DNA of 44,109 bases, from positions 1 through 44,109 of the forward strand of contig JANLIQ010000076.1 of assembly GCA_024654065.1 (NCBI GenBank). Direction: 5' to 3'. The stretch comes from Candidatus Berkelbacteria bacterium (GTDB lineage: Bacteria > Patescibacteriota > UBA1384 > 2-12-FULL-50-11). Below are positions 11,301 to 35,300 of this stretch, piece after piece. A model generated the notes under the pieces. It had not been told where the DNA came from. It did no database searches and saw only the letters and a program-made list of their open reading frames with translations. Position numbers and translations under genes: made by a program. Each line of letters opens with the position of its first letter. Within the stretch, counting starts at the first letter, position 1.

Positions 11301-12131
11301 ACGGATACCTGCAAGCTTCATGTCAGTTAAGACACGGAGACGCTTCATCAAACGACGGTAAGTGTTGCTTTGAACATTGCTGGCGTGTGCCTTAATTGCA
11401 GAAATCTCAGCGTCAAGGTCAATCTTTTTCAATAGTTCGAGAATTGCTTCTGCGCCAATAGCGACTTTAATAATATTGCCAAACCTTAATGAAATCTCAT
11501 GGAATTTGGCTTCTGGTAGAATCTGACGAGGCAGTAAGGACTGAAGGTCAGATTTAGTTTGTTTATAGTTTAATTCTAGCTGCTCAAGACGCTCCACGGA
11601 ATCTTTAAGCATTTCTTTTGCGCTCTTATATTCACTCTCTAGCTGAGAAAGCGCTTCAGCTTTAAGCTGTTCGTCAACACCAGTTACCACAAAGCTTGCA
11701 AAGTAGATTACTTTTTCAAGATCACTCACAGAGATGTCAAGAATTGTGCTTAAGATATATGGCACACCACGAACGTACCAGATATGGGCTACGGGTACCG
11801 CTAGATCAATATGACCCATCCGCTCACGTCGAACGGAGCTACGAGTTACTTCAACACCACATTTATCACAGATAACACCTTTGTAACGAATCCGCTTGTA
11901 CTTACCGCAGTAACACTCCCAGTCTTTAGTAGGACCAAAAATCCGCTCATCGAAGAGACCATCACGCTCTGGTTTCTGTGTTCGGTAGTTAATGGTTTCA
12001 GGCTTCATAACCTCGCCGTAAGACCATTTTTCAATATCTTCAGGCGAAGCAACACGAAGACGGAGTCCTTCAAAATTAAGAAGGCTAAATTCGGCTTTCT
12101 CTGGCTTGGTATTTAGTTTTAGTTCGGCCAT
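8319..12131 (-). CDS. rpoC: RNA polymerase subunit beta'
   Basis: [16 protein letters not shown]; zinc-binding [44 protein letters not shown]. Confidence 0.99.
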
Positions 12132-15100
12132 TATTTTGTCTCCTTACTCGCTTCTTTAATTTCTTCTGGTTCTTCGGCTAGTTCTGCTTCGTCCATCTGG
12201 GGTTCTTTTAATTCTTCTGAAGCTAGGTCAAGAGATTCCGCTTCTTCGTCTACTTTCATACCCGAAGCAAAGACTTCAGCCTGCATTAAGGCTCGCTGGC
12301 TTTCCAGCTCCTGCAACCGCTCTTCGTTTTCGATTACTTCAACGTTCAAGCTCAGCCCCTGTAATTCGCGCACCAAGACGGCAAACGACGCTGGAACCTG
12401 TGGTTTCTGGATCTCTTCACCACGGATAATTGCTTCGTAAGCCTTCGCTCGCCCGATAACATCATCAGATTTGATTGTTAGCATTTCCTGTAAGGAATGG
12501 GCTGCCCCGTAAGCTTCAAGGGCCCAAACTTCCATTTCACCGAAACGCTGTCCGCCAAACTGGGCCTTACCACCGAGAGGTTGTTGAGTAACCATTGAGT
12601 AAGGTCCGGTTGAGCGAGCATGCATCTTGTCATCAACAAGGTGAATTAATTTAAGCATGTACTTAATACCGACCGTTGTCTGTTCGTCGTAACCGATACC
12701 TGCTCGTCCGTCACGGAGCTGGATCTTACCGGTCTCAGGCAATCCAGCCTTTTTAAGCTCGGTTACTATATCTTCTACCGGAACACCGAAGAAGGCAGGT
12801 GTTGCAACTTTGTAGCCCAGTATTTTAGCGGCCCAACCTAAGTGAGTTTCTAGAATCTGACCTAAATTCATACGTGAGATAACGCCAAGTGGGTTAAGGA
12901 TGATATCAACAGGTGTACCGTCAGGTAGAAATGGCATATCTGCCTCTGGGAGAACGACTGAAATAACACCTTTGTTGCCGTGTCGTCCTGCCATCTTATC
13001 CCCTACCGTAACTTTACGTAACTGTGCGATCGAAACTTCAATTTGCTGGTAAACACCAGCTGGTAATTCGTCGCCTTTATCTTTTGAGAAGATCTTTACC
13101 TCAACAATCTTGCCGCGTTCACCGTGCGGTAGACGGAGTGAAGTATCTTTTACGTCTTTAGCTTTTTCACCAAAGATTGCTCGTAGCAGTTTCTCTTCCG
13201 CGGTAAGTTCGGTCTCACCCTTAGGTGTAATTTTTCCAACGAGAATATCACCAGATGAACACTCTGCTCCAATACGAACAATTCCTTGTTCGTCGAGATT
13301 TGCTAGAGCTTCATCACCAACATTTGGAATGTCTCGAGTGATTAACTCTGGACCAAGTTTAGTGTCACGAACTTCTGTTGAATATTTCTCAATGTGAATA
13401 GAAGTAAAACGATCATTTCGAACTAAGCGCTCCGAAACGATAATAGCATCCTCGTAGTTGTAACCGCCCCAGCTTAGATATGCGACAGTTACGTTTTGAC
13501 CAATTGCAAGCTCTCCTTGATCTGAAGCCGAAGAGTCGACAATCACCTGGCCTTTAGTAACCTTATCGCCAATCTTTACTGTTGAGCGCTGGTTAATACA
13601 GGTGCTTTGGTTTGAACGAACAAACTTAGATAGAAGGTAAGTTTTTTCCTTAGAACCGGTTTTAATTCGGATCTGCTCACCGTCAGCGTATGTAACTACA
13701 CCGTCATCTTCCGAAACAACTAATTGTCCAGAATCTTTCACAGCACCTTCTAGTCCGGTACCAATAATTGGTGCCTGCGGTCGTACCAGGGGGACTGCTT
13801 GTCGTTGCATGTTTGAACCCATCGATGCACGAGTAGCATCGTTATGTTCAACGAACGGAATTAAAGCAGAGGAGATAGATACAGTCTGTTGAGGAGATAC
13901 GTCGATATAGTCAACTTTGGTTGGGCTTTCAATTAATGGATCACCGTGGCGACGAGCAATAACCTTAGAGCCAACAATGTAGCCGTCTTTATCTAGTTTA
14001 GTTGAGAACGGTGCTAAGGTGTATTTCTCTTCTTCGAAAGCATCTAGATATTCAACCTTACTAGTAACACGAGCTTTCGAGCCTTTTATTTCAATCTTAC
14101 GAAACGGGGTTTCGATGAAGCCATATTCGTTAACACGAGCGTTAGATGCCAGGTAGCCTACCAAGCCAATATTTTGACCTTCTGGAGTTGTGATCGGACA
14201 AACACGACCGTAGTGAGAACGGTGAACGTCACGAACGTCAAAGCCGGCATGTTCTCGAGACAATCCCCCAGGGCCGGTAGCAGATAGAGTTCTTTTATGC
14301 TCCAACTCTGCCAAAGGGTTGGTTTGGTTCATAAACTGGCTCATCTGACTGGATGCGAAGAACTCCTGTAGAATAGCGGCGACTGGACGTGAGTTTATAA
14401 GAGCAATTGGGTTAACCTCATCTGGCTCAGCAATCTGACTCATACGGTCTTTGATAATACGTTCTACACGAAGCAGACCAACACGAATGCGGTTCTGAAC
14501 TAACTCACCGACAGCGCGAACTCGTCGATTCTTTAAATGATCCACGTCATCAGGCAGACTTCCTGGAGTATTGTTTAGACGAATTATCTCTTTGATAGTT
14601 TCAACAACGTCCTCAAGACGTAACACACGATTCTTATCTGTGTTTGGAACGTTCATCTCTAAACGTTGATTGATCTTGTAGCGACCAACACGACCTAGGT
14701 CGTATCGTTTTGCATTGAAAAAGATTGTATCTATATAGCTTTTGGCAGTCTCTGGAGTTACTAAGTCACCGGGACGAATTCGCTTGTAAACCTCAACTAA
14801 CGCCTCTTCGTAAGTAGCAGCAGGGTCACGAGCTAAAGTTGACTCTATATACTGAGCATCTTTATTGGTATCTACGTCCTTAAACAAGGTGGTGATCTGT
14901 TTGTCGTCTAGTTTTGCCAGTGCTCGCAAGAAAGTGGTAATGGGGATGCGTCGTTTTCGATCAACCTTAACCGAAATGACATTGCGAGAGTTCGTTTCAA
15001 ACTCTAGCCATGCGCCACGATTAGGGATGACTTTAGCCCCAAAGAGATTTCTGCCACCAATGGTTTCACTAGTAAACAACACGCCAAATGAACGAACAAT

Positions 15101-15469
15101 CTGGGAAACAACAACCCGTTCGACACCGTTAATAATGAAGGTGCCACGATCAGTCATTAATGGGAAATCACCTAAAAAGACCTCTCCCGTTTTAGTCTTG
15201 TTGGTTAGTTTATTCGTTAGTTTAATTTGGCACCGAAGAGGAGCCTTATAAGAGAGATTCTTGTCTTTAGAAGTCTTCTCGTCGTATTTAGCCGGATCTA
15301 GTGAGTATTTGCCAAATTCTAAGGAAAAGAGCTTACCGGTGAAATCTTCAACTGGTGAGATTTCATTCAAGAGTTCACCAATGCCCTCATCAAAAAGCCA
15401 GCCGTAACTTTTCAGCTGCACTTCAATTAAATTAGAGAGTCCCTCCTGAGCTTCCAATGGGCGAAACAA
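12131..15469 (-). CDS. rpoB: RNA polymerase subunit beta
   Basis: GPGGLSREHAGFDVRDVHRSHYGRVCPITTPEGQNIGLV; GDKMAGRHGNKGVIS. TTG start downstream of AGGAGGAAT. Confidence 0.99.
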   Translation of the reverse strand: MFRPLEAQEGLSNLIEVQLKSYGWLFDEGIGELLNEISPVEDFTGKLFSLEFGKYSLDPAKYDEKTSKDKNLSYKAPLRCQIKLTNKLTNKTKTGEVFLGDFPLMTDRGTFIINGVERVVVSQIVRSFGVLFTSETIGGRNLFGAKVIPNRGAWLEFETNSRNVISVKVDRKRRIPITTFLRALAKLDDKQITTLFKDVDTNKDAQYIESTLARDPAATYEEALVEVYKRIRPGDLVTPETAKSYIDTIFFNAKRYDLGRVGRYKINQRLEMNVPNTDKNRVLRLEDVVETIKEIIRLNNTPGSLPDDVDHLKNRRVRAVGELVQNRIRVGLLRVERIIKDRMSQIAEPDEVNPIALINSRPVAAILQEFFASSQMSQFMNQTNPLAELEHKRTLSATGPGGLSREHAGFDVRDVHRSHYGRVCPITTPEGQNIGLVGYLASNARVNEYGFIETPFRKIEIKGSKARVTSKVEYLDAFEEEKYTLAPFSTKLDKDGYIVGSKVIARRHGDPLIESPTKVDYIDVSPQQTVSISSALIPFVEHNDATRASMGSNMQRQAVPLVRPQAPIIGTGLEGAVKDSGQLVVSEDDGVVTYADGEQIRIKTGSKEKTYLLSKFVRSNQSTCINQRSTVKIGDKVTKGQVIVDSSASDQGELAIGQNVTVAYLSWGGYNYEDAIIVSERLVRNDRFTSIHIEKYSTEVRDTKLGPELITRDIPNVGDEALANLDEQGIVRIGAECSSGDILVGKITPKGETELTAEEKLLRAIFGEKAKDVKDTSLRLPHGERGKIVEVKIFSKDKGDELPAGVYQQIEVSIAQLRKVTVGDKMAGRHGNKGVISVVLPEADMPFLPDGTPVDIILNPLGVISRMNLGQILETHLGWAAKILGYKVATPAFFGVPVEDIVTELKKAGLPETGKIQLRDGRAGIGYDEQTTVGIKYMLKLIHLVDDKMHARSTGPYSMVTQQPLGGKAQFGGQRFGEMEVWALEAYGAAHSLQEMLTIKSDDVIGRAKAYEAIIRGEEIQKPQVPASFAVLVRELQGLSLNVEVIENEERLQELESQRALMQAEVFASGMKVDEEAESLDLASEELKEPQMDEAELAEEPEEIKEASKETK

Positions 15470-15654
15470 CTTGCGCAGTATTCCTCCTAGCTAGTTAAAC
15501 AAAAAGCCACTCCGTTATGGAGCAAAACACCCTCGACGCTATGTCGTTTGTTTATTTCTCCTATTTCCCCAACCTGTTCCGAAACTAATAATAACTGAAT
15601 CGAACCGTTTGTCAATAGGCAATTTCTGACAGCTAAGTTTGAAGAACCCTACGA

Positions 15655-18600
15655 CTAACTCAGCACCTCAAGCAGGTTATTATAGCCAGCGTTTTTAGCA
15701 AAGTTGTTCAGACTATAAAGGTTTTTTAATAATAACGTGATCCGTAGAGGTACTTTTAAGCCGACTTCTTTAATCTTCGTAACCAGATCAAATATTCCCT
15801 CTGGATTCTCAGCAATAGATACCGAGTTAACACCGTTTGATAATAAAGCCATAAGCTCTTCTTTGGAAAAAGTTGTATCATGATTCTCTGGCTGTCGAAG
15901 GAGATATTCGGCTAAAGCTCCCCTGACATTATCACCTGTTAAGCTCCCGAACAGTTGACGGTCATCATCTGATAGCTCTAAATAAAAATTTCGATCCAAG
16001 ATAGCCACCTTCTTATCTTCGGTTATTCTGAAGTTACCCGGGTGAACGTCGGAGTGTACGACACCGCTGACTATTTGATAGAGATAGTTGGAGGTAACTA
16101 GTCGAACGACTTCTTTCATGTCCTGTTCGGACAGTATTCCTTCTTGGTAATTTGTTGAATCGCCAACGCGAAACTGCGTCAGATTCTTTCCTTCTATAAA
16201 CTCCTCGACCTTGACGTACTTACCGCTATTCTCATCCAAACGAGGTACTTGAATCTGATAATCGCTTCCCTCAACCTTAAACCCGTTCCAATTTGCGTTG
16301 AATTGCCTTTCATTCTCGATAAAGCGCTCGTCATTAATATCCGACAAAAGCCATTCCTCGAGATCGGCAAGTAGATGTTCTTTAACCATCTTGTAATGAA
16401 GGTTGTCTGGAGACTTTTTTATAAGACGATCGGCAGTACGATGGGCAAGGTTCATTGACTCTCGAATTCGCTGTTCGGCATTCGGATTAAGAACTTTTAC
16501 TACCGTAGGGGTCTCGACGGACGGATTGTCATGGCGATAGACTGTTAAAAGCGAGCCGCCGCCGACTCGCGCCGAAAGCATACTGTCTTCCTGGAGTAGG
16601 TCCGGTCTTTCGCGTTGAATTGTACGGAAAGCTGATAATTTTGATTGGCCTTTAATTGAGTCGTACACGGCGGAGAATTTCTGCTCCACGGCCGGATCAA
16701 TATGGACATATTGTCCGAGTAGTTGCAAGAAGCGAACGCCGGGAGCGCCAAGCGTCGTAGCGACTTCGATCATTGCCTCGGACTCCTCCATCTTTTCAAA
16801 AATAACCCCCTCACGATAAGCCTCGGGCAGAGACCGTAGCACTTCCTGCTCCCCGAAGTTAATCGGTCGCTCCGAGTTCTCGGTGCCGATTTTTCCGTGG
16901 AATGACCAACGGTATGTTTTTTCTACAGCAGCGTCACCAAGTGTTTCATAGCCTGGAACCTCTACGGGCAGTTCTCGATCCAGTTCGTCTTCGAATCCAG
17001 AACCCTCCTGCTTGTACTCGTCGCGGATCGTCTCTTTGATAATCGAGCGGTAATCGGCTGACTCGGTCGGACGTTGAAGAATTGCGCGAGCCAGTAGAGG
17101 GCTTAGAAGAAAGTAGAGTTCGTCTTTATTGGCTGCACCCGCTAGTGACTCCATAATCTCATCCACCATTTGCACGCGTTCAGGCTTCAGTTTGACGTGA
17201 TTGTCGAATAAGCGATGAGCAACCTCCATAGTATTGTGTCGGGTATTTAGAACACCATCCTCGGGTTTGGTTAAAAGCTTTCGAACAATGCCGTGCCGTT
17301 CGACGATGTTGCTTCGATACAAACGCTCAAGCAGGTCGTCTATACGGACATATAATTGTCCTCTGTATGAATCGACATCCTGACGCAGAGCCGGTTTGTC
17401 TTCTATCCAACTATTAATTTTTTCAGGCGAGTCAAAATAGGTAAGCGTAGACGGATCAAGTCGTCCGGCGACATCTGATTCTTTCGTAATTACACCCCAC
17501 CAGTGTTCAATTAAAATACGGGCAAAACCCTGTTCATCCTCCCGAGTTTCGGTAAGCGCCAGAAGCGAGCCACTTGGATCTTTCAGTATCTTTTCCAGCA
17601 CCGCGTCTGCTCCGGTGAGCGTGCCGATTTCCTTCGAAGATTCTTGGTATGAATCCAGAATATATTTTTGAACTTCGATCATCTGCGCAGGAGTTTGAGC
17701 CAGATTCTCTGTCAGGTGGTCGATAAGTTCCGGCGAGTCTCCGACGCCGATCTTTTTATCCACAAAAAGAAGAGTCTTCAGCTCGCCATAAGTAACACCA
17801 TGAGCCAGCTCATTCGCGGCGAAAGCTTTAACCCGCCGTCGGATATCCGAGTCGATGAATAAGTCTGCCAGCAACATCTTTCTTTCGGGTAATAGGTTCG
17901 GGTTCCATAATTTTTGAATAACTTCCTGAATCGTTTCTAATAGTTTCTCGACATCATAAATGTCGGAATTAAGCCGCGGCCATGAGAATCTGGTGAATTG
18001 ATACCAGCGTTCCAATCCGCTCCACGCTTTTTCATTTTCGAGCTTGATTGCTTTTTCCATGAGGTTGGTGAAAAGATTAGGCCATTCATACAAACCCTTC
18101 ATCCATTGGCCACTGCCTTCAAAATAAGAGTCGCTCAAGCTCTTAAACAGCTCCAGGAGCGCCGCCTCCTTTTCTGAATCATCTTGCGAGTAAATACTGT
18201 CAAAAGCGCGGATGGTAGAGTTACAGATATCGCTCCAAAGTGAACTGTTAATATCGTAATGTCCCGCATCTAGCATTAATTCCTTATAAAGATTCAAAAC
18301 TCGCGCCTGCGACTCGGGCTGATTATTATCGATCTTCAGTCGATCATCTTCTTCTAGTGCAAGTAGAATGTTCAGGTAGGTAGAACTAGCATCCATCGGC
18401 GCCATTGAAGAGCAATTCTCTCGTAAGATAGTCGGGAATCTCTCCATATTAGTCGCGATATAGCTGATAATTTTTTCGTCCGCATCTCCGGACACTTCGT
18501 TGCTTCCACCGGTTGTTTTGTTGAACTGTTTCAGTAGCTGCGAGAACTCATCGGACTCTACTCTCTCTTTTGAAACGATCGAATCTAACACCCGGCGTAC

Positions 18601-20154
18601 TCCATCAATCCCCTTGGTCGAACCAGTACGCTCGAGAATTTCGATAATGGTTGCTTCATTACTGTCACTGATAGATGTTGCGACGTTGTTGATAAATGTT
18701 TGTTGATTAAAGAAGCGGTCGTAGCCGAGCTGGAGCATAAAGCGATCAACAGTAAGTGCAAGCTTTTGAAGCTCTAAGAGAAATATTCCGGGGTCAAACT
18801 CTCCGTTTGCTTCGTTCGTAAAAACGGCCGCAATTTTATCAAGATGGACAATGTAGTCCTCTAGCCGCGACTGGAAACCGTCGGAACAGAACAAGAAATC
18901 AATATCGCCTTTTTGCCATAACTCTGGATCGAAAATATTGCCGATGCTCTGCAATCGATTTTCGCTGGCATCATCTACTATCTCTAATGATAGAAAGTCA
19001 CCCTCTTTAGATTTGATATCAGCAACTTTCGAGTATTTTTGAAGAGGAATAGCTAGTCCTATCTCGAGCAAGGCGAATAACTGTGGTGCTTTTAATGATT
19101 CTGGAAAGTTATTCGCGTTTTGCAAGCTGTCGAAGATTTTTTGGCTGGCTTCTTGGTATGCGATAATTTCGAAGGAAGTAGTCGTTGTATTTTCCGCGCT
19201 TGTTCGTATCATCTGCTTCTGTTCGTCTCGGCCATTATTTCTAATATGTCGCTGAACTAGGCGATAAGTCTCTTCCCTCCATTTGGCAAGGGCTTCTGTC
19301 GCAAGAAGTAAAGATCGAGCGTCGCCCGTCCTTGTTAAGTTTGTCGCCAACTCCTCAACAGCCTGTCGCTCCATCTTCGCTAATGCCTCAAATTCCCGAT
19401 AGAAAGGTTTTTCCTCTAGTTGCGTTAACTCTTGGGTTGACTCCTTAAACTCGGATGAGAGTGGACTCGATTCTTGAGAGATATTTTCTATATCAAGAAA
19501 GTATTTCAGTGACAAAATATTCAAACGCCTGTCTTCGAGACTCCCATGTGCAACGGACCAGCCACCTTCTTCTGTCTGAAGCCGCTCAAAGAGTGAAGCT
19601 CCGGCTAACGGATTATAGCCTGATTTTTCTAGGAAATTCACAACGCTGACCAAGTCGGCTTCTACTTCGTTCATTCGGTCAAGTCCGGCGTGTGATTTGA
19701 CCCGATCTAGCGCTCTCTTGCTAAGCCCTTTATTCATCTGTCGAGCGGCATGCCCGGCTTTAACATGCTGACCTTCATGGGCAAGAAGAGCCGCGAGCTC
19801 GTCTTCGGTTGTCACCTTTTGAAGAATTCCAGGGTGGATGATAATGTGGCCATCAGGCAGAGCAAAAGCGTTGGCGATCGAATTTCCTCGACTGACCCTT
19901 ACCTTGTAAAGACTATCTTCCCCAAACAGTCGACTGCTGATCTCATCAATTTTAGCTTGAGTCGGACTATCTTTTGGGGCAAATCCGTAAACCGCTTCTA
20001 GTATTTTGACTTCTTGGTTGCTTGCCGCCGATAAATAGCGTTCGTCTACATCTTCGTGAGTTGTTCCTTGCTCGTTAAGCTCCTTCGGTTGCAACGTAGA
20101 CTCGTCCGAAGGAGGGACGGCATGTAATCCCAGGTCTCGAGACTCTATACTCAT
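15655..20154 (-). CDS. M48-type metalloprotease / ABC1 (UbiB-like) atypical kinase fusion, 1499 aa
   Basis: N-terminus: NAFALPDGHIIIHPGILQKVTTEDELAALLAHEGQHVKAGH...NEVEADLVSV...AHGSLEDRRLNI. C-terminus: TVVKVLNPNAEQRI...VEEFIEGKNLTQF...SGVVHSDVHPGNFRITEDKKVAILDRN. No obvious signal peptide. Confidence 0.85.
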   Translation of the reverse strand: MSIESRDLGLHAVPPSDESTLQPKELNEQGTTHEDVDERYLSAASNQEVKILEAVYGFAPKDSPTQAKIDEISSRLFGEDSLYKVRVSRGNSIANAFALPDGHIIIHPGILQKVTTEDELAALLAHEGQHVKAGHAARQMNKGLSKRALDRVKSHAGLDRMNEVEADLVSVVNFLEKSGYNPLAGASLFERLQTEEGGWSVAHGSLEDRRLNILSLKYFLDIENISQESSPLSSEFKESTQELTQLEEKPFYREFEALAKMERQAVEELATNLTRTGDARSLLLATEALAKWREETYRLVQRHIRNNGRDEQKQMIRTSAENTTTTSFEIIAYQEASQKIFDSLQNANNFPESLKAPQLFALLEIGLAIPLQKYSKVADIKSKEGDFLSLEIVDDASENRLQSIGNIFDPELWQKGDIDFLFCSDGFQSRLEDYIVHLDKIAAVFTNEANGEFDPGIFLLELQKLALTVDRFMLQLGYDRFFNQQTFINNVATSISDSNEATIIEILERTGSTKGIDGVRRVLDSIVSKERVESDEFSQLLKQFNKTTGGSNEVSGDADEKIISYIATNMERFPTILRENCSSMAPMDASSTYLNILLALEEDDRLKIDNNQPESQARVLNLYKELMLDAGHYDINSSLWSDICNSTIRAFDSIYSQDDSEKEAALLELFKSLSDSYFEGSGQWMKGLYEWPNLFTNLMEKAIKLENEKAWSGLERWYQFTRFSWPRLNSDIYDVEKLLETIQEVIQKLWNPNLLPERKMLLADLFIDSDIRRRVKAFAANELAHGVTYGELKTLLFVDKKIGVGDSPELIDHLTENLAQTPAQMIEVQKYILDSYQESSKEIGTLTGADAVLEKILKDPSGSLLALTETREDEQGFARILIEHWWGVITKESDVAGRLDPSTLTYFDSPEKINSWIEDKPALRQDVDSYRGQLYVRIDDLLERLYRSNIVERHGIVRKLLTKPEDGVLNTRHNTMEVAHRLFDNHVKLKPERVQMVDEIMESLAGAANKDELYFLLSPLLARAILQRPTESADYRSIIKETIRDEYKQEGSGFEDELDRELPVEVPGYETLGDAAVEKTYRWSFHGKIGTENSERPINFGEQEVLRSLPEAYREGVIFEKMEESEAMIEVATTLGAPGVRFLQLLGQYVHIDPAVEQKFSAVYDSIKGQSKLSAFRTIQRERPDLLQEDSMLSARVGGGSLLTVYRHDNPSVETPTVVKVLNPNAEQRIRESMNLAHRTADRLIKKSPDNLHYKMVKEHLLADLEEWLLSDINDERFIENERQFNANWNGFKVEGSDYQIQVPRLDENSGKYVKVEEFIEGKNLTQFRVGDSTNYQEGILSEQDMKEVVRLVTSNYLYQIVSGVVHSDVHPGNFRITEDKKVAILDRNFYLELSDDDRQLFGSLTGDNVRGALAEYLLRQPENHDTTFSKEELMALLSNGVNSVSIAENPEGIFDLVTKIKEVGLKVPLRITLLLKNLYSLNNFAKNAGYNNLLEVLS

Positions 20155-20225: not shown

Positions 20226-21188
20226 TTAGACAATTTCAAGCAAGCGGGTCTGAAGCTCTTTTAGGTTAGCTCCAGTCGTGGCACTGACCAGAACTGCTTG
20301 AGGATATTTTTTCTGCATAGCTTTTGTTTCGTCAAGCGAGAGTAGGTCGGACTTATTGATGACCACCAATCGCGGTTTATCAAGTAAGGTCGGATCGTAC
20401 TTCTTTAGTTCAGTTAAAACGGAGTTTTCTGATCGCTTGAGTTCCGGCGCAGTACCATCGAGTACATGCAGCAGTACCTTGACGCGCTGGGTATGCTTGA
20501 GGAATTCCGCACCCAGCCCTTTGCCTCGATGAGCGCCTTCGATTAAGCCTGGTAGATCAACCAAGGTTAAGGATTGCTCGCCAAGCGGTAAGACCCCTAG
20601 AACTGGTTCAGTGGTGGAGAAATTATAGGCACCGATTCGGACATTAGCTCCAGTTAGAGCCTTGATTATTGACGATTTGCCCGAGCTTGGCTCGCCGATC
20701 AGGGCTACATCGGCTACTAATTGTAGCTCCAATTTAACATTCAAAACCTGTCCGGGCGTGCCTTTGGTGGCTTCGAATGGATTCTGATTGGTCGACGACA
20801 CAAAATGGACATTACCTAGTCCGCCCTGGCCGCCTCGAGCAATGACGATACTCTCGTCGCTAGTGGTTAAGTCGGCAATGACTCGATTATCAACAAGATT
20901 GATTACCCGAGTTCCGGTAGGAATAAGTAGCTCTAAGTCAGCGCCGGCCGAACCGGTCTTTCTTTTATTGGCGCCGTTGTGGCCCCGTTCGGCCTTAAAT
21001 GTTTTTCGAAAACGAAACGAGGCTAAGGTATCTAGGTTGTGAGTACTGCGCAAAATAATACTACCGCCCCGACCACCGTCGCCACCCTCAGGACCGCCCC
21101 TAGCCACAAACTTCTCTCTTCGCCACGCAATCACTCCATCGCCACCGTCACCAGCTTTGAGCTCAATCTCAACTGAATCTACCAACAT
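20226..21188 (-). CDS. obgE: Obg-family GTPase
   Basis: Glycine-rich Obg fold (GGDGGRGGSIILRS) and GTPase motifs GEPSSGKSSIIKALTG, LVDLPGLIEGAHRGKGLG, NKSD. Confidence 0.97.
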   Translation of the reverse strand: MLVDSVEIELKAGDGGDGVIAWRREKFVARGGPEGGDGGRGGSIILRSTHNLDTLASFRFRKTFKAERGHNGANKRKTGSAGADLELLIPTGTRVINLVDNRVIADLTTSDESIVIARGGQGGLGNVHFVSSTNQNPFEATKGTPGQVLNVKLELQLVADVALIGEPSSGKSSIIKALTGANVRIGAYNFSTTEPVLGVLPLGEQSLTLVDLPGLIEGAHRGKGLGAEFLKHTQRVKVLLHVLDGTAPELKRSENSVLTELKKYDPTLLDKPRLVVINKSDLLSLDETKAMQKKYPQAVLVSATTGANLKELQTRLLEIV

Positions 21189-22552
21189 TAACTTGAGGTT
21201 CCGAAAACGATCTTCAACAATTCACGCAGGAGAACGGGCGGATTCTTAAGGATATTAGTGTCAGGGTTGATATTGAAGGTTTCGGTCAACAGACCGGGGT
21301 TTGGGAGTAAAATATTGCCTTTGGCTATAAAGATACCATTCACAGTTCCTTTTTTTATGTCGTTATTCCCAAAAATAATGTTGCCACCTAAGGAAATATA
21401 CGTTCCACAGTCAATTTTCAGATTGCCATTCGAAGGAGCCTCAAAGACAATGTCACCTTCTGTGATTAAGGCAAATCGCGTTCCAGAAGCACAAGAAACG
21501 CCACCAAGAAACTTGACTGGCATTGAACCTTCAGTCGCATGTCTTCTAACGGAAATTGTTCCTGCTCCAGAAAATGTAGTTCCCTTTTTTTCATCTTGAC
21601 CAATTTTGTAAAAACCATCAGGCGAATCAACAAAGACATTCCACAGCCTTCCCTCTGGAGGAGTCGAAAATGTATTCATATCTAGTTTATGTGGAATATA
21701 TTTATCGGCAGAGTTGAGGTTCCAATTTGCGTCATTATAGATAATAACCTCATTGGCATTATAAGATTTATTAGAATTAAATTGATTAATTAATGTAGAT
21801 CCAATTTTAGTCCAGTTAATGGTAGAAATACGATCTTTATCGTAATTAGAAATAGTTTCTCCATTCACGGATGTACCAACTAAATTTCCAACTGCTAGCG
21901 CGGATTCAGATTGAATGAAGCCGTCCAACGTTCCATTTAAAGCGGCTGTGTTACCACTAATAATAATTCCTTTATTAAGGGGGATTGTCTGGAACAGATA
22001 TGCAGATAAATTACGACTACCTCCTTTTACTGTAGTAATCGTCTTGAGACAAATATGAGTTGTGCCAACCCCGCATCCCGGTCCAGATAGGAAGGTAGTA
22101 GGATGAGATTGCCCTGATGGAGGATTCTCTAAATAGCTCTTCACCTTCTCGATATCTTCTTTACTAACGTCTGTATCAAATGTTAATCGGAAGTCTTTTA
22201 ACACAGGAAGTTCATCTTTCTCAATACCTTTAATGGATATCTTATAATATTCTCCATCAGCACCACCATTAATAATACTGGTGCTGATGGTATGGTTAGG
22301 AAAGCTACCCTGACCCTCAGTGAGGGTAAACTTATTATTATTGAAAGTGTAAGTAACCCCAGCTTTCGGAAAACGAAGTTTCGCTGGCATCATAATCAAT
22401 TTCGGGGGTAACTCAATGATAATCTGTGCTGTCCTTGGTGGTAGTCGTGAGAAAATAAACATGCTTCCCCCCGGTGGTGGTCCGTATGCTTTCGCCGACG
22501 GAATTAAGATAAAAATAAGTAGCAAGGAGAATAGAAACCGTTTAATCATCAT
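21188..22552 (-). CDS. Exported beta-rich protein (454 aa) with shared C-terminal domain
   Basis: N-terminal signal sequence MMIKRFLFSLLLIFILIPSAKAYG. C-terminus FSTPPEGRLW...GAGTISV...VNGIFIAKGNILLP...LLRELLKIVFGTSS resembles the 826-aa protein at 24974-27454. Confidence 0.8.
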   Translation of the reverse strand: MMIKRFLFSLLLIFILIPSAKAYGPPPGGSMFIFSRLPPRTAQIIIELPPKLIMMPAKLRFPKAGVTYTFNNNKFTLTEGQGSFPNHTISTSIINGGADGEYYKISIKGIEKDELPVLKDFRLTFDTDVSKEDIEKVKSYLENPPSGQSHPTTFLSGPGCGVGTTHICLKTITTVKGGSRNLSAYLFQTIPLNKGIIISGNTAALNGTLDGFIQSESALAVGNLVGTSVNGETISNYDKDRISTINWTKIGSTLINQFNSNKSYNANEVIIYNDANWNLNSADKYIPHKLDMNTFSTPPEGRLWNVFVDSPDGFYKIGQDEKKGTTFSGAGTISVRRHATEGSMPVKFLGGVSCASGTRFALITEGDIVFEAPSNGNLKIDCGTYISLGGNIIFGNNDIKKGTVNGIFIAKGNILLPNPGLLTETFNINPDTNILKNPPVLLRELLKIVFGTSS

Positions 22553-24973: not shown

Positions 24974-27454
24974 TCAAGACGAGGTGGTAAAAACAATCCT
25001 CAGCAGTTCCTGGTAGAGTGCGGTTGGATTACTTGCAAATAAAGAATCGTATTCAACATTAAATGGACCAGTCAACGAAATTTTACTGGGTAATCTAATT
25101 GAATTCTTAGCAATAAAAATACCTTTAACTTGACCACTTGGAACATTTTTGAAAATTATTGTCCCATCATTACTACTTGAGCTCCGACTTAAAGCAGTAT
25201 AAGCACCGCAACCAACGAAATCAGTATTGATATTTATTTTCCCGTGAACGATAAAACCGAGACGAGTACTATCCTCACAAAGAAGTCTTCCGTTGATATT
25301 AAGATCCCCATTTATAACAATCGTACCAGCTCCATGGAAAGTAACCGAACCTAGAGTTAAGCTATTATTTTCGATTTTCCAAATTTTACCCTCAGGAGGG
25401 GAAGAAAAAGTACTACTATTACTATTAGTTGGAATATTTGTATCTGAGTTTAAAAACCAATTAGCTCCATAATAACTTCCGCCACTTACCCCAGTACCAA
25501 GACCTTGACCCTTTGCATAAAGAGCACCCAATTTGAGACTAATTCGGTTCCAATCAAATGTTTCTGATTGACCATCAATATAATCATCGAGTTGATTAGT
25601 CGAACCCTGAACATTTACCGAACCTCCTACTGCTATTGCCTTAGAGTCAAGCGTGAAACCAGCTACTTGTTCGGGTGCAGCCACATTGCCTTCGACATTT
25701 ATTTGGCTAACATCGATCGGTATTCTTTGTAATAAAGTTTGGTTAATTGGGTTTCCTGGACGCTCGGTGGGATTATTTAGAGTTAGTCTAGATCGCAAAC
25801 ATAGGTTAGTCGCCACATCTTCTTGAGCTGGAACACAATCTGAGTCTCCAAGAAAAGTATGATCAAGAGATTGTGGTTGGTTTCTAAGAGATCCGACAAT
25901 ATTATTGAAAACAGCAAACGTCACCCGTTCTTTATATGTTAACCTCACGCCCCAATTCTGAATTCTGGGATCATCTAAATTAATTCCGTCACCCTTAATA
26001 ATATCTTTTATGGTTAGCCGGAAGGTATTATCAACTAAGTTGTTATTGACCCGATCCACACTTATTTTTGGTGAACAAAGACTGTTTGTCATAAAACAAA
26101 GGCTGGTTTCGTCGAATGTATAAAGCTGATCACCAAACCGTAATCGATCAGGGGTATAAATCTGGCTCGTAGGTAAGTTGATCTGCAAACTAGCCGGATC
26201 TGGCAATATCCCACATTTGTCTCCGGGAAATGATTTAAGCGAACTAATTGGGGTTCTCCAAACTTTAGCAACATTTGTCGAACCTTGATTAGTACTGCCC
26301 GTTCCTCGACCCTCGGCAATAAAGATATTGTCTTTATGAATGGCTATATCAGTAACCGAGTAGCCTCTAAACTCCGTATCCCTCCGATCGATAGAACGAT
26401 AGAAGTATGAATCGGAGCCTACCGGCAAAACATGTGAAGGACAAGCCCGATAAAAATCTCCCTCTTGCGTCCCGATCATTAGCTGACGATCAGTCAATGC
26501 CCGCAGGGATGTGACAGCACCCTTACTGAAACCATAGCTGTTGCCGGGGCAATGTTGTGAGCTTCCCTCCAGGAAGCAAGTCGAGTTCAATTTTACATAA
26601 GTAACCCCATCCCAAGTTTGGTAAAGAGTATCAGATACGCCATTTGCCCTTTTTGATAAACCGACGTAATTAATGCCAAATAATTCGGCGGACGAGCCGA
26701 TACATTCTGTCATTGTTCGAGGAAGACCATCTGGGAAATATGATTTCCAGCTATTGGCATTGCCATTGTCAACAGATCTGATAAGTCGACAGCCAACGGT
26801 TCCTTGGCCTGAATTCAAAAATGATGCAAACAGAGTCTGTCCGATTGAGAAAATGTGTTGAATAGCATAATAGCCGCTGCTACCTAGACCATCAGTAACT
26901 ACCTGTTCCCAATTGGGGTTTCGTGGATCTTCAGTATTTTTCAGCCGCCAGATTTGAGCTCCATCGTAATTACGGGTTCCGGCATAGAGATAGTCACCGA
27001 AAACTGCAAGTGACGTAATCTCTTTATTTCCAGGATTAGGCCAGGGGGGAGACGGTAATTTAGTGTTGAACCATGTATTTAAATTCGGGTCAAACGCAAA
27101 CACATATGACTTGCCCGCCCCTATGGCTCGTGATCCAGCGTAAACATACTTCGTACCATCGGTATTAGGAAACTCAACCAAAGAAGTAGTTTTATCACCA
27201 CTAACACCACCTAAATTGCCTGAAGGGAAAAATAGGTTGGTCGTTTGACGAACCTGGGCACCGTTGGTATTTTCCGTTCCAGCCATTAAGGTATCTCCGT
27301 ACGAAAGAAGTTTCGTAGCACTAATATTTTCTGATTGTCCAAAACCAAAATCACTAGCACTACTCCAATTGTCAGCTGCTTGAGCTGTCATCGGCCTACT
27401 AAAGACGCTAATAACTATTAAGACTGCCAATAAGACTTTACTTACTTTCTTCAT
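24974..27454 (-). CDS. Exported protein (826 aa): beta-propeller-like N-terminus plus shared C-terminal domain
   Basis: Signal peptide MKKVSKVLLAVLIVISVFSRPMTAQAAD; repeats YGDTLMAGTENTNGAQV / FGDYLYAGTRNYDGAQIW; C-terminus FSSPPEGKIW...GAGTIVI...VKGIFIAKNSIRLP...LYQELLRIVFTTSS. Confidence 0.8.
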   Translation of the reverse strand: MKKVSKVLLAVLIVISVFSRPMTAQAADNWSSASDFGFGQSENISATKLLSYGDTLMAGTENTNGAQVRQTTNLFFPSGNLGGVSGDKTTSLVEFPNTDGTKYVYAGSRAIGAGKSYVFAFDPNLNTWFNTKLPSPPWPNPGNKEITSLAVFGDYLYAGTRNYDGAQIWRLKNTEDPRNPNWEQVVTDGLGSSGYYAIQHIFSIGQTLFASFLNSGQGTVGCRLIRSVDNGNANSWKSYFPDGLPRTMTECIGSSAELFGINYVGLSKRANGVSDTLYQTWDGVTYVKLNSTCFLEGSSQHCPGNSYGFSKGAVTSLRALTDRQLMIGTQEGDFYRACPSHVLPVGSDSYFYRSIDRRDTEFRGYSVTDIAIHKDNIFIAEGRGTGSTNQGSTNVAKVWRTPISSLKSFPGDKCGILPDPASLQINLPTSQIYTPDRLRFGDQLYTFDETSLCFMTNSLCSPKISVDRVNNNLVDNTFRLTIKDIIKGDGINLDDPRIQNWGVRLTYKERVTFAVFNNIVGSLRNQPQSLDHTFLGDSDCVPAQEDVATNLCLRSRLTLNNPTERPGNPINQTLLQRIPIDVSQINVEGNVAAPEQVAGFTLDSKAIAVGGSVNVQGSTNQLDDYIDGQSETFDWNRISLKLGALYAKGQGLGTGVSGGSYYGANWFLNSDTNIPTNSNSSTFSSPPEGKIWKIENNSLTLGSVTFHGAGTIVINGDLNINGRLLCEDSTRLGFIVHGKININTDFVGCGAYTALSRSSSSNDGTIIFKNVPSGQVKGIFIAKNSIRLPSKISLTGPFNVEYDSLFASNPTALYQELLRIVFTTSS

Positions 27455-30673: not shown

Positions 30674-32377
30674 CTACTCAACACTAATTTTGATAAAGGC
30701 TAGGACATCGCCTTTTTCTAATTCAGGAGCGCCTTCCATACCAACTCCACATTGTTCACCAACTTCGGCTTGATCAACAGCAACTTTACCAATCTTTAAA
30801 CCAGTCATTTTAGCCTTCCCGATTTCTTCTTTATCGCGGTAAGCAACAACTTCATCGCTCATCGTCACGATGCCTTGAGTAACATCTCCACCAGCAATAG
30901 CAATACCTTTTTTCTGAGAAAAGACTTGCAAAATTTTTAGTCGTCCTGTCTCTTCACGCACATAAACTGGAGTAGCAATTTTCTTTAATTTTTCCGTTAA
31001 AAGATCTAGAGCTTCATAGATAACCCAAAACTCACGTAATTCCACTTCTTCTTTTTCGGCTAAGTCCAACATGCGTTTTGTTGGAGTCGAACGAAATGCA
31101 ATGACTAAGGCCTTCGCCGGTTTAGCTAAATTAATATCATTTTCGTTAATCGCTCCAATGCCACTTGAAAGTATCTCAACTGTCGCATCTTTGATTTTAA
31201 GTTTAGAAATCGAATCCTCAAGTGCCGCTAAAGAACCCCCAACATCAGTTTTTAAAACTATTCTTAAGTGATTATCGTTTTCGTCTGTTACCGCTTTGGA
31301 TGTAGTTGCCGTTTGAACCACCATTGTTTTAGCGACTTTTTCATTAGGTGCTGTTATCAGACGATCACCAAATATTGGTACATTTTTTAAACCCATAATT
31401 ACAACCGGAGTGGCTGGTCCAGCAGTGACAATATTACGCCCTAGATCATTTTCTAATACTTTAATCCGACCATATGTCCCACCCGTAACAACGACCTGAC
31501 CAGCTCTGAGTGTTCCGTTATAGATAAGGACGGTAGCAATTGGACCACGTTGTTTATCCATATTGGCTTCAATAACAATGCCTTCGCTTGGAGCCTCAGG
31601 ATCAGCTTTAAGCTCAAGTAAATCGGTTGTTAAAATTACCATTTCAAGTAACTGATCCACACCCTTACCAGTCTTAGCAGAAACGGGGACGACTACAGTT
31701 TTACCACCCCATTCCTCGGGGGCTAGATCATTTTCGACTAATTGTTGTTTGACTCTTTCGATATTTGCCCCAGGTAAATCAAATTTATTTATTGCAACTA
31801 TAACCGGTACATTAGCGCTACGAGCATGGTGGAGAGCCTCAAGAGTCTGTGGTTTGACACCATCATCAGCTGCAACTACTAAAATAACTAAATCCGTAAT
31901 ACTTGCTCCGTGAGCCCTCAGAGCCGAAAATGCTTCGTGACCAGGCGTATCCACAAAAGTAATTTTTCGTTTACTTCCTTCTGAGGTTTTAAACTCAATC
32001 TGGTAAGCACTGATATGTTGGGTGATCCCACCAGATTCACCACCAGCAATGTTAGATTGTCGGATAAAGTCTAATAGAGAAGTTTTGCCATGATCAACAT
32101 GACCCATTATCGTTACGATCGGTGGTCGGGCAATTGAAGATTTTGTATCCGTACTTTTAGTAAAAACATTTGTTGCTACAACTTCTTGTTCGGCTGTCCA
32201 CCCAAATTCCTCGACCAATAGTGCTGCAGTATCATAGTCAATCGACTGGTTAATTGTTGCCATAACACCGTTTTTTATCAACTTACCAATCACGTCAGTA
32301 GCACCAACCTTCATTTTATCTGCCAACGCTCTGACGGAAATAGATTCCGGTAATTGGAGAACCTTTTGTTCGGCCAT
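30674..32377 (-). CDS. infB: Translation initiation factor IF-2 (short form, 567 aa)
   Basis: [48 protein letters not shown]. Confidence 0.98.
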   Translation of the reverse strand: MAEQKVLQLPESISVRALADKMKVGATDVIGKLIKNGVMATINQSIDYDTAALLVEEFGWTAEQEVVATNVFTKSTDTKSSIARPPIVTIMGHVDHGKTSLLDFIRQSNIAGGESGGITQHISAYQIEFKTSEGSKRKITFVDTPGHEAFSALRAHGASITDLVILVVAADDGVKPQTLEALHHARSANVPVIVAINKFDLPGANIERVKQQLVENDLAPEEWGGKTVVVPVSAKTGKGVDQLLEMVILTTDLLELKADPEAPSEGIVIEANMDKQRGPIATVLIYNGTLRAGQVVVTGGTYGRIKVLENDLGRNIVTAGPATPVVIMGLKNVPIFGDRLITAPNEKVAKTMVVQTATTSKAVTDENDNHLRIVLKTDVGGSLAALEDSISKLKIKDATVEILSSGIGAINENDINLAKPAKALVIAFRSTPTKRMLDLAEKEEVELREFWVIYEALDLLTEKLKKIATPVYVREETGRLKILQVFSQKKGIAIAGGDVTQGIVTMSDEVVAYRDKEEIGKAKMTGLKIGKVAVDQAEVGEQCGVGMEGAPELEKGDVLAFIKISVE

Positions 32378-35300
32378 TATTTCTTCCCCTTTGGCTCTAC
32401 AATCTCCTCGGGCGAAACTTCGTCGGATTCGTTGACAACTGTCATGGAGACAACTTTGTCATTACCACTTGAGCGCATTAAGATAACACCCGAAGCTTGA
32501 CGTGATAGTTTTTTTACAGAAGCAATTGGTATTCGAATAACTTGACCCGTATCTGAAACAATAATTAAATCTTTAGACTGTTTATTGATAACTGTCCCAC
32601 CTGCCAGTAAACCAGTTTTAGGTGTTAATTTGGCTATTCGGATACCGCTTCCACCACGATGCTGGTTGCGAAATTCTTTAACGTTAACTTTTTTACCAAC
32701 ACCATTTTTCGAAATTACACAGATAGCCTCAGATTCATCAGTTAGAACAGTTGTTTCGATTATTTCGTCGTCTCCTTTAAGCCGCATTCCTCTTACCCCT
32801 GAGGCGCTTCGACCCATTACCCGAGCTTCTGACTCATTGTATAAAATAACCTGTCCATTTTTCGTCATTTGAGCAATCTCATCGCTCCCAGTAGTTCGTT
32901 TAACCCAAAGTAAAACATCTTTTGGTTTCAGACCAATAGCGATCACTCCACTTTTACGAACATTTTTAAATGCTTCAGTCGCAACACGTTTAACTACACC
33001 TAATCTTGTTGCAAAGAAGAAAAATCCAGCTCGATTTTTATCCGACATTGTGATTAAGGCCGTAACTTTTTCTTCGGCTTCAATTCGAATTAAGTTAGGT
33101 AGGGCAATACCCTTGCTTTGGCGACTAGAAGCTGGAATTTCGTAAGCTTTAATAGTGAAAACTCTTCCGGCATCGGTAAAGAACATAATATCGTCGTGCG
33201 TTGAAGCAAAAACAATATCAACAACAGCGTCATCCTCACGCGTTTGCATCCCAATTACACCTTTACCACCTCTTTGTTGGCTCTTATAGGTATCGGCCGG
33301 AAGACGCTTGACATAGTTACCCCGAGTCAAGCTAATTAAGACAGACTCTTCGGGAATCAAATCTATAGCCGTAAGTTGACCCAGAGCTTCAGGACGAATT
33401 TCAGTTTTACGCTCAATATTAAACTTAGCTTTCATTTCCAATAACTCGTCCTTAATAATTTTTTGAATTCTCGCTGGCTTAGCAAGAATGTCTTCCAAAT
33501 CAGCAATTAGTTTCAAAATTGCATCATATTCATCGTAAATTCGCTGACGTTCGAGATTAGCTAATTGGGACAAACGCATTTCCAAAATAGCATTGGCCTG
33601 TATCTCAGTCAGTTCGAACTGCTTCATCAATTCGGTCTTAGCCTCTTCCCGATCTTTAGAAGCTCGAATTAATTTAATGATGGCATCAAGATGATCAAGA
33701 GCAATCTTTAATCCTTCTAAAATATGGGCCCGAGCTTTGGCAATCTTCAAATCATATTCAGTTCGACGAGTAACAATAGTTATTCTATGGGCTAAGAACT
33801 CGCAAAGGACTTCCGTGACATTAAGTAATCGCGGCTGGATTCCGTCAATTAAAGCCACTAGATTATAATGGACAACAGATTGTAATTCAGTTAGCTCATA
33901 TAGTTGGTTTAAGATTTTTGAGGCCATCGCTCCAACCTTTAGCTCGACTACCACCCTCACACCATCTTTTTGATCCGACTCATCGCGAAGATCACTTATA
34001 CCCTCGATTTTTTTACTTTTGACCAAATCAGCAATATGAGTAACAAAAGTCGCTTTATTTGTTTGATATGGAAGTTCACTTACAATAATCCTGTTTCGAT
34101 TTTTCTCTTCTTGAATTTCTGCTCGTCCGCGTACCACGACTCGACCCCGACCAGTTGAAAGAGCTTCCTTAATATCATTTTGACCGTAGGCAATTCCTCC
34201 AGTAGGAAAATCAGGTCCCTTAATGATTTCGATTAATTCATCAACGTCGGCTTCTGGTTTTTCTTGTAATAAAAGTAACCCATCTATTATTTCACCGACA
34301 TTGTGAGGAGGAATATTTGTAGCTAAACCTACAGCAATTCCTTGCGAGCCATTAATTAACAGATTAGGCAAGCGCGCCGGTAAGACTACTGGCTCTTTGT
34401 GGGTACCATCGTAGTTGTCTTGAAAGTCCACCGTGTCTTTGTCAATGTCCGCCAAAAGGGCTTCTGCGGCGCCGACTAACTTTGCCTCGCTGTACCTCAT
34501 GGCCGCTGCCGGATCCCCATCCATCGAGTTGTGGACAAAGATACCGCTCGCTAGAGCAAAGTTATGACTGCCTTCAATAGTCAGATCGAATACATCTTCC
34601 CGCTCAGCTAATACTTTAATACTAATAACTTTATGGTTCTGATTGATCGAATGCAAAACTAAATTAGGATCGTTGTCGTAATATTTATTAAGCCCTATTT
34701 CCCATTTAGTTGCGCCGCCGTAATTGTACAACTCAGTTCGTTTCTTCTCATACAGTTCCTTATTGAGAGGTTTTTTATCGTTCAATACGGCCCTACAGAT
34801 GTTTAGAAACTTTGATTTACCCGTAAGATTCGTAAGTCGTCTTTTATTTGAAGCGACAATCTTTTCGTGAAAAATTTGTCGATACTCCGGCACTTGCCAT
34901 AGTCTCTTCAAGGTCTTTGAGCCACGGGTAGCTAGCTCGAGTCGCTTCTCGGGGTGGTTCTTGACAAACTCCTTATTAACCGCACTGAGAAAGAGTCGCA
35001 TTTTCTCCTGATAGGCCGGATCCTGCCAATTCTTCAGGTTTCTTTCAGACAGTCTAGCCCCATATTCTTTTCGATTTTTTGGGTCAGACCAGAATGCGGC
35101 TCGACCAATAGCTATTTTTTGTCGATATTCCTCATCTTTATGCAGTTCAGTAGCGTGTTGGTAATGAATTTCCCAGTGATCGCCCCATTCAACCCTTAAA
35201 ATGTTATCAGGATTATTGTTGAGCTTATTAAAATCGACATGATGCCTCACTCTTCCCCTGCTCTTGGAGTAGATTCCCTGGGTAAGGTTGTAATTGTCAG

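What the first reader, a model, noticed from the sequence alone, without database searches (positions are those of the whole stretch)
15655..20154. Giant M48 metalloprotease / ABC1-UbiB kinase-like fusion protein
One uninterrupted 1499-aa ORF carries a full M48 signature set at the N-terminus (HEGQH, NEVEAD, HGSLEDR; about 19510-20022). It carries an ABC1/UbiB-like kinase core at the C-terminus (VVKVLNP Lys, EFIEG, HSDVHPGNF, ILDRN; about 15850-16560). The ~900-aa linker in between appears mostly helical. The metal-binding Asp is kept in an LDRN context rather than a DFG-like one, and the A-rich loop seems replaced by GGGSLLTVYR. I know both families separately but not this architecture, and a cytosolic M48 without TM helices is itself unusual. 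It could be a proteolysis/phospho-signalling or AMPylation-like switch.
Basis: partly seen in the sequence, partly recalled or inferred. Interest (0 to 1): 0.85.

Follow-up and report, generated by a model that had tools for sequence, protein, structure and literature searches.

The report
Giant M48 protease–UbiB kinase fusion family
A tiny, probably host-dependent bacterium makes a 1,499-residue soluble protein with a zinc protease at one end and a kinase-like ATP-binding domain at the other; the same two-headed protein recurs, rare and fast-evolving, in several bacterial phyla, sometimes repeated inside proteins of up to 13,472 residues, and no description of it was found.

Summary
One 1,499-aa frame (15655-20154, minus) has an M48 zinc-protease domain (Pfam E=1.5e-14) and a C-terminal ABC1/UbiB domain (1.2e-14), joined by ~850 mostly helical residues with no known domain; no TM helix or signal peptide. 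It is not a chimera: about 33 paired modules were found in Patescibacteria, Saganbacteria and the phylum of an 'Elusimicrobia' MAG, as free 1.5-2.0-kaa proteins, adjacent gene pairs, or embedded in ORFs up to 13,472 aa with three tandem copies. M48 zinc ligands are intact in 33/33; kinase catalytic Asp, Asn and metal Asp in 35/35. M48 and kinase trees both pair the window with a module in another phylum's 7,356-aa ORF. The gene sits between obg and rpoB, adjacent in six of seven relatives. AlphaFold plus structure alignment puts the C-terminus on human COQ8A (Z 25). Likeliest mechanism: an ATP-using UbiB-fold head and a zinc protease working on shared clients via a helical scaffold. Substrate and cellular role are unknown.

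The parts
15655..20154 (-). Giant M48-helical linker-UbiB ORF, 1,499 aa plus stop
19414..19989 (-). M48 zinc-peptidase domain (residues 56-247)
   Evidence: Pfam PF01435 1.5e-14; PDB 3c37 1.9e-10 by sequence and Foldseek prob 1.00 on the model; family HMM 2.4e-56 (window is in the training set)
19765..19779 (-). HEGQH zinc-binding/catalytic motif (126-130)
   Evidence: H126 and H130 in 33/33 modules
19654..19671 (-). NEVEAD; third zinc ligand E163
   Evidence: E163 in 33/33 modules
19528..19548 (-). HGSLEDR motif (203-209)
   Evidence: H203 32/32, R209 31/32 with letters
16858..19407 (-). Alpha-helical linker (~850 aa), probable solenoid
   Evidence: No significant Pfam family; helix after helix in the model, low pLDDT; its C-terminal part aligns with relatives at 25-34%
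15658..16857 (-). UbiB/ABC1-fold domain with N-terminal extension (residues 1100-1499)
   Evidence: PF03109 1.2e-14; AF2 pLDDT 75.5; VIA-align to COQ8A 5i35 Z 25.4, 333 residues, rmsd 3.5
16723..16734 (-). RFLQ, replacing the UbiB KxGQ motif (R1141, Q1144)
   Evidence: RxxQ in 16/16 subclade members with letters, KxGQ/KxxQ in solo UbiBs
16552..16563 (-). GGGS loop, replacing the UbiB Ala-rich loop
16492..16503 (-). VVKV, beta-3 lysine K1220
   Evidence: K in 15/17 subclade A and 17/18 group B modules
16330..16341 (-). DIND, at the place of the UbiB ExD motif
16033..16056 (-). HSDVHPGN catalytic loop
   Evidence: D1369 and N1374 in 35/35 giant modules
15991..16002 (-). ILDR metal-binding Asp D1387 (DFG position)
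   Evidence: D in 35/35 giant modules
20226..21188 (-). obg GTPase, upstream neighbour
12131..15469 (-). rpoB, downstream neighbour; directly next to obg in six of seven family relatives, an unrelated ORF between them in the seventh
15588..15615 (-). Promoter-like TTGACA-16-TATTAT before rpoB (11/12)
   Evidence: consensus match only

Best explanation
Identity (very likely): a member of a recurrent protein module for which no description was found: M48 zinc peptidase, then ~850-1,600 aa of mostly helical scaffold, then a UbiB/ABC1-fold kinase-like domain, inherited as a unit and passed between phyla of small uncultured bacteria. Mechanism (most likely, inferred): a soluble two-headed enzyme. 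The scaffold holds a client protein. The UbiB-fold head binds Mg-ATP and, in the window's subclade, is released from the usual UbiB self-restraint (GGGS instead of the Ala-rich loop, RxLQ instead of KxGQ, ExD lost), so it phosphorylates or remodels the client or the protein itself. The M48 head then cleaves the client, the ATP cycle gating when it does. Shown: architecture, intact catalytic residues, fold, co-inheritance, loss of the restraint motifs. Inferred: kinase and protease activity, their coupling, the scaffold's client-binding role. Unknown: substrate and cellular role; presence in reduced, probably host-dependent lineages suggests interaction with a partner cell or specialised proteostasis.
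For: Both domains above curated cut-offs and again in G264, G115, G384, G102 and G663; family HMMs find paired M48 and kinase in Saganbacteria L115, 'Elusimicrobia' L118 and further ORFs or gene pairs of that phylum. Zinc ligands 33/33; kinase D, N and metal D 35/35. Independent trees of the two ends give the same two groups and the same sister of the window, L151: kinase 94% SH-aLRT, M48 98/96. Co-linear match to L151 over both ends, 34%. COQ8A Z 25.4 against about 11 for ordinary protein kinases. In ADCK3 the Ala-rich-loop A339G change reverses ADP preference and enables autophosphorylation, enhanced by removing KxGQ (PMC4718504). No TM or signal peptide in nearly all free forms. Separate adjacent M48 and UbiB genes in G251 with a 4-nt overlap suggest the heads work together.
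Against: No activity, expression or substrate is known. In subclade A the column of the alpha-C Glu that normally pairs with the beta-3 Lys is Phe/Tyr; an acid four residues on is conserved and may replace it, or the domain may only bind nucleotide. Two subclade-A members lack the Lys (L104, L109). The linker model is low confidence (pLDDT about 30-65), so scaffold function and any contact between heads are guesses. Linker homology between the two groups is weak (hhalign E 0.005, probability 7%). PDB hits for the M48 include envelope proteases (BepA), so a soluble cytosolic setting needs testing.
Confidence: 0.45

Rival explanations
1. The UbiB-fold domain is an ATPase/lipid-handling module, as proposed for COQ8 and MSMEG_1954-type proteins, not a protein kinase. 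It extracts lipid-attached or membrane-bound clients and hands them to the M48 protease at the membrane face.
For: After COQ8A the best structural matches are mycobacterial UbiB-like proteins with ADP or macrolide; M48 relatives with structures include envelope-linked BepA; group B keeps KxxQ, a Ser/Ala-rich loop and ExD, like canonical UbiB; 'Elusimicrobia' L118 has TM-like segments near the M48.
Against: Subclade A, with the window, lost exactly the motifs linked to canonical UbiB behaviour; no TM or signal peptide in the window protein; no UbiA prenyltransferase found in the window's genome, ~91% complete.
Confidence: 0.27
2. It is a factor for contact with another cell (host or prey): the module is a working part of large surface or injected proteins, and the 1.5-kaa forms are the same factor made alone.
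For: Modules lie inside ORFs of 3.5-13.5 kaa, some with signal-like N-termini, in the 'Elusimicrobia' MAG's phylum; giant proteins of Omnitrophota/Elusimicrobia have been read as predation weapons (PMC12057145); patchy, fast-evolving distribution.
Against: The window protein has no export signal; the kinase-like head needs ATP, scarce outside cells; Pfam scans of the flanks of the L151 and L118 modules found no adhesin or hydrolase domain.
Confidence: 0.18
3. It is a conflict/defence gene (anti-phage), kept at variable genome sites.
For: Inserted at different sites, present in a few percent of sampled genomes, diverged even within one genus; weak PADLOC PD-T4-6 kinase matches, best 1.8e-4.
Against: PADLOC matches cover only the generic kinase core and vanish in other members; no defence genes recognised beside the window gene.
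Confidence: 0.08
4. Assembly chimera or chance fusion of two unrelated genes.
For: None found.
Against: Independent assemblies in at least three phyla carry the same order and similar spacing; both ends give the same sister; uniform GC.
Confidence: 0.01

Closest known systems
UbiB/ADCK/COQ8 atypical kinase family (COQ8A/ADCK3; Pfam PF03109 ABC1)
   Same: Fold including the N-terminal extension (Z 25.4 over 333 residues), beta-3 Lys, HxDxHxGN loop, metal Asp
   Different: Window subclade: KxGQ to RxLQ, Ala-rich loop to GGGS, ExD and alpha-C Glu column changed, KxxNPN instead of KxxRP; C-terminal part of a giant protein; far below the NCBIfam UbiB cut-off (43.8 vs 487.55 bits)
M48 peptidases BepA/LoiP/HtpX (PF01435)
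   Same: HExxH, third Glu ligand, H-x5-R motif; BepA also joins an M48 domain to a helical repeat region
   Different: No signal peptide or TM; followed by ~850 aa of unknown helices and a UbiB kinase fold
Mycobacterial UbiB-like ATPases MSMEG_1954 / Rv3197 (MABP-1)
   Same: UbiB fold binding ADP/AMPPNP; Z 17-19
   Different: Not fused to a protease; the window model is closer to COQ8A
Class III lanthionine synthetase LanKC
   Same: Weak similarity of the kinase core (0.004)
   Different: No lyase or cyclase domain; explained by the shared kinase fold
Giant proteins of Omnitrophota/Elusimicrobia (cited in PMC12057145)
   Same: The module sits inside giant ORFs of the phylum of the 'Elusimicrobia' MAG
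   Different: The window protein is free-standing and soluble; no M48-UbiB module was mentioned in the papers read

Membership tests
Peptidase family M48 | Pfam profile above gathering score | tested here: met
   54.7 vs 20.3 bits
Peptidase family M48 | HExxH plus downstream Glu zinc ligand | tested here: met
   H126, H130, E163; 33/33 modules
Peptidase family M48 | M48-type fold | tested here: met
   3c37 Foldseek prob 1.00, TMt 0.58-0.59
Peptidase family M48 | Zinc-dependent proteolysis | not testable with these tools
   needs protein
UbiB/ABC1 (broad superfamily) | Pfam ABC1 above gathering score | tested here: met
   54.5 vs 22.9 bits
UbiB/ABC1 (broad superfamily) | COQ8A-like fold including N-terminal extension | tested here: met
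   Z 25.4; model 196-569 on COQ8A 261-630
UbiB/ABC1 (broad superfamily) | Kinase catalytic residues Lys, Asp, Asn, Asp | tested here: met
   K1220, D1369, N1374, D1387
Canonical UbiB/COQ8 | KxGQ motif | tested here: not met
   RFLQ; RxxQ in 16/16 subclade members
Canonical UbiB/COQ8 | Ala-rich nucleotide loop | tested here: not met
   GGGS
Canonical UbiB/COQ8 | ExD motif and alpha-C Glu | tested here: not met
   DIND, Phe at the Glu column; acid four residues on
Canonical UbiB/COQ8 | NCBIfam UbiB equivalog cut-off | tested here: not met
   43.8 vs 487.55 bits
Canonical UbiB/COQ8 | Genome makes prenylquinones (UbiA present) | tested here: inconclusive
   No UbiA in own genome, but only ~91% complete; UbiA-family match in 8 of 11 other carriers searched
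BepA-type protease | Exported (signal peptide) M48 + TPR | tested here: not met
   No hydrophobic segment at the N-terminus; no TPR match in Pfam
LanKC lanthionine synthetase | Lyase and cyclase domains with the kinase | tested here: not met
   No such Pfam match; 13.3 vs 575 bits
PD-T4-6 phage defence kinase | Full-length family match | tested here: not met
   Only ~75 residues of the kinase core, 1.8e-4; none in two other members

The most novel reading that the evidence does not exclude
A new class of bifunctional protease-kinase machine in reduced and giant-protein bacteria. A UbiB-type domain has naturally shed its self-inhibitory elements to become a true protein kinase coupled in one chain to a zinc protease; it is used free in Patescibacteria and as tandem modules inside giant proteins of another phylum, spreading between phyla as one unit.
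Probability: 0.35. Interest if true: 0.88.

Novelty: new variant of a known kind. Interest (0 to 1): 0.72.

Why it matters
What UbiB-family proteins do with ATP is a long-standing question (kinase, ATPase or lipid extractor). Here is a natural subclade in which the restraining motifs, previously studied by mutating ADCK3, are already changed, so the idea can be tested without engineering. The constant pairing with an intact M48 protease offers a functional clue to both families in organisms that cannot be cultured, and gives a domain-level handle on otherwise uninterpretable giant proteins. That the same module passes between Patescibacteria, Saganbacteria and the phylum of an 'Elusimicrobia' MAG suggests a shared way of life.

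Tried and rejected
Single-sequence searches of genome contigs, viral contigs, phages and plasmids with the whole protein found no full-length relative, only single-domain matches; the family is too diverged and profiles were needed. G200 giant proteins with weak ABC1 hits are ordinary protein-kinase proteins without a Pfam M48 match, and were set aside. Shorter M48 proteins of the window's class are exported-looking LoiP/BepA-like enzymes, different in architecture. G036's ABC1 hit looks APH-like. Nine diverged rows gave no pattern for a named-genome scan; two closer rows did. The linker's fold was not resolved: weak Foldseek matches to diverse helical-repeat proteins come from a low-confidence model and are not evidence of kinship. 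Fold searches listed no AMPylator, but that is no proof of absence. Text searches for M48 + ABC1/UbiB fusions found no paper; most subscription journals and all preprints, including the giant-gene preprint cited in PMC12057145, were not readable.
Full report
What was checked. The window's minus-strand ORF 15655-20154 is open for 1,499 codons. Pfam finds Peptidase_M48 (1.5e-14, residues 70-142) and ABC1 (1.2e-14, residues 1197-1402), both far over cut-off. NCBIfam gives UbiB and BepA/LoiP models as nearest, far below their own cut-offs. No segment looks transmembrane and the linker has no significant Pfam match.

Setting. The genome is small (770 kb in 77 contigs, ~91% complete). The gene lies between obg and rpoB. 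In six of the seven other genomes of its family obg is followed directly by rpoB; in the same-genus genome an unrelated 333-aa ORF on the other strand sits between them. It is therefore an insertion at a variable slot in a core gene string. rpoB has its own promoter-like element downstream of the giant gene, so rpoB need not depend on it.

It is a family. The window's own class (55 genomes held) contains no other copy, by protein, by PF03109 or by profile. In the phylum (379 genomes) PF03109 showed long open frames. Reading them gave M48-linker-ABC1 proteins of 1,796 aa (G264), 1,908 (G115), 1,886 (G384), 1,607 (G102) and 1,965 (G073, M48 recognised only by alignment), and a two-gene version in G251: a 922-aa M48 ORF overlapping by 4 nt a 1,426-aa ABC1 ORF. 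A kinase profile on the class of G264 (328 genomes) added G663, G404, G582, G499, G568, G665, G210, G622 (contig edge), G610 (with masked bases) and G577, where the contig is one open frame of 6,782 aa. A named-genome scan found relatives in Daviesbacteria, Saganbacteria (1,490 aa), Peregrinibacteria (fragment), Beckwithbacteria (split frame) and an 'Elusimicrobia' MAG (inside an ORF of at least 3,512 aa). In the phylum of that MAG (247 genomes) the module sits mostly in ORFs of 3.5-13.5 kaa. Family HMMs place M48 and kinase in order: two modules in a 5,125-aa ORF (L156), three in a 13,472-aa ORF (L152/L153), and split over adjacent frames in L154 and L155. The phylum of the Saganbacteria genome (74 genomes) adds more candidates, frames of 872-1,625 aa, not read further. 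In the sampled sets the family is found in roughly 2-4% of genomes.

One unit, two groups. In a tree of 63 kinase domains, 27 of the 28 solo UbiB proteins form one group (99% SH-aLRT) and the window's subclade A (17 rows) another (99%); the remaining giants (B) lie between (several long branches, so details are unsure). An independent tree of 33 M48 domains recovers the same A/B division apart from one truncated row, though the separating branch itself is weakly supported. Both trees pair the window with L151, a module in a 7,356-aa ORF of another phylum (kinase 94% SH-aLRT; M48 98/96). Blast shows that pair co-linear: 34% over 801 aa of linker plus kinase and 35% over the N-terminal 259 aa. 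Two ends telling the same story, across phyla, means the module is inherited and transferred whole. Within one genus (g231: G264, G663, G568) the copies are from different groups or barely alike, again pointing to transfer.

Active sites. H126, H130 and E163 are in 33/33 M48 domains, the H203/R209 motif in nearly all. In 35 giant kinase domains the catalytic Asp, Asn and metal Asp are invariant and the Lys is kept in 32. Such constancy in proteins otherwise 20-30% identical implies that both heads are used.

Fold. AF2 of residues 931-1499 with 15 sequences: pLDDT 75.5. VIA-align: COQ8A Z 25.4, rmsd 3.5, 333 residues including the N-terminal extension; mycobacterial UbiB-like proteins 17-19; RIO kinases 11-14; ordinary protein kinases about 11. 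The extension of the model starts on COQ8A's with model 193 on residue 258, which puts R1141 where COQ8A has the Lys of KxGQ (my inference from the ranges). AF2 of residues 1-1120: M48 mostly confident (74-92 over residues 60-130), linker all-helical but poor (about 30-65). Foldseek gives M48 peptidase 3c37 at probability 1.00.

What is special about the window's subclade. Solo UbiBs and most of group B have KxGQ/KxxQ, a Ser/Ala-rich loop, KxxRP and ExD-x3-E. Subclade A has RxxQ (16/16), GGGS (14/17, variants otherwise), KxxNPN, and D/E-x-N/D-like residues with Phe/Tyr at the Glu column. In ADCK3 the KxGQ and ExD motifs fold into the active site, the Ala-rich loop goes with ADP preference, and A339G reverses this and allows autophosphorylation, more so without KxGQ (PMC4718504). 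Subclade A thus looks naturally de-repressed. The missing alpha-C Glu is the main caveat; a conserved acid four residues later might serve.

Function. Shown: two intact active sites, one chain, helical middle, soluble in free form, co-inherited. Inferred: ATP-driven action of the kinase-like head on a client or on the protein itself, with proteolysis by the M48 head, the scaffold bringing the client to both. A quinone role is unlikely here: no UbiA was found in this genome, though it is incomplete. Relatives in giant proteins of a phylum whose giants have been read as predation or surface machines (PMC12057145) make a partner-cell role possible, but the window protein has no export signal. PADLOC gives only generic kinase matches.

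Novelty. Both ends belong to known superfamilies; the joined module, its subclade signatures and its tandem use in giant proteins are not a unit in Pfam, NCBIfam or PADLOC as searched, nor in any paper found. I call it a new variant of a known kind; if the coupled activity is shown it would be a new class of enzyme.

Noticed in passing
window 32377-36111: gyrA carries a 391-aa intein-like insertion ([12 protein letters not shown] ... FVHN|SMDGD, with an HNH-like [14 protein letters not shown] stretch); four family relatives read straight through GNFGSMDGD.
   Followed up: partly
L110 (G577 contig 25): A 20,348-base Patescibacteria contig is one open frame of at least 6,782 aa with methyltransferase, M48 and UbiB domains, and an intein-like CVTGDTLLL...HTFVAGN stretch near its end.
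   Followed up: partly
L152, L153 (G800 contig 16): 13,472-aa open frame with three tandem M48-UbiB modules; the same genome has further module-bearing ORFs of 7,356 and 6,996 aa.
   Followed up: partly
L025:5245-6246: In the same-genus genome the obg-rpoB gap holds an unrelated 333-aa lipoprotein-like ORF on the opposite strand, so this gap may be a recurrent insertion site.
   Followed up: no
G663 contig 9, 10640-11026: A second, apparently decayed fragment of the same kinase subclade in the Daviesbacteria genome (140-aa frame).
   Followed up: no
window 21188-22552 and 24974-27454: Two exported-looking ORFs of 454 and 826 aa share a similar C-terminal stretch (GIFIAKGNILLP / GIFIAKNSIRLP); they lie in the variable stretch between infB and obg.
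   Followed up: no
L065, L066 (G200): Paralogous 1,365- and 1,380-aa proteins with an internal protein-kinase domain; one lies next to a 1,414-aa protein of unknown family.
   Followed up: no
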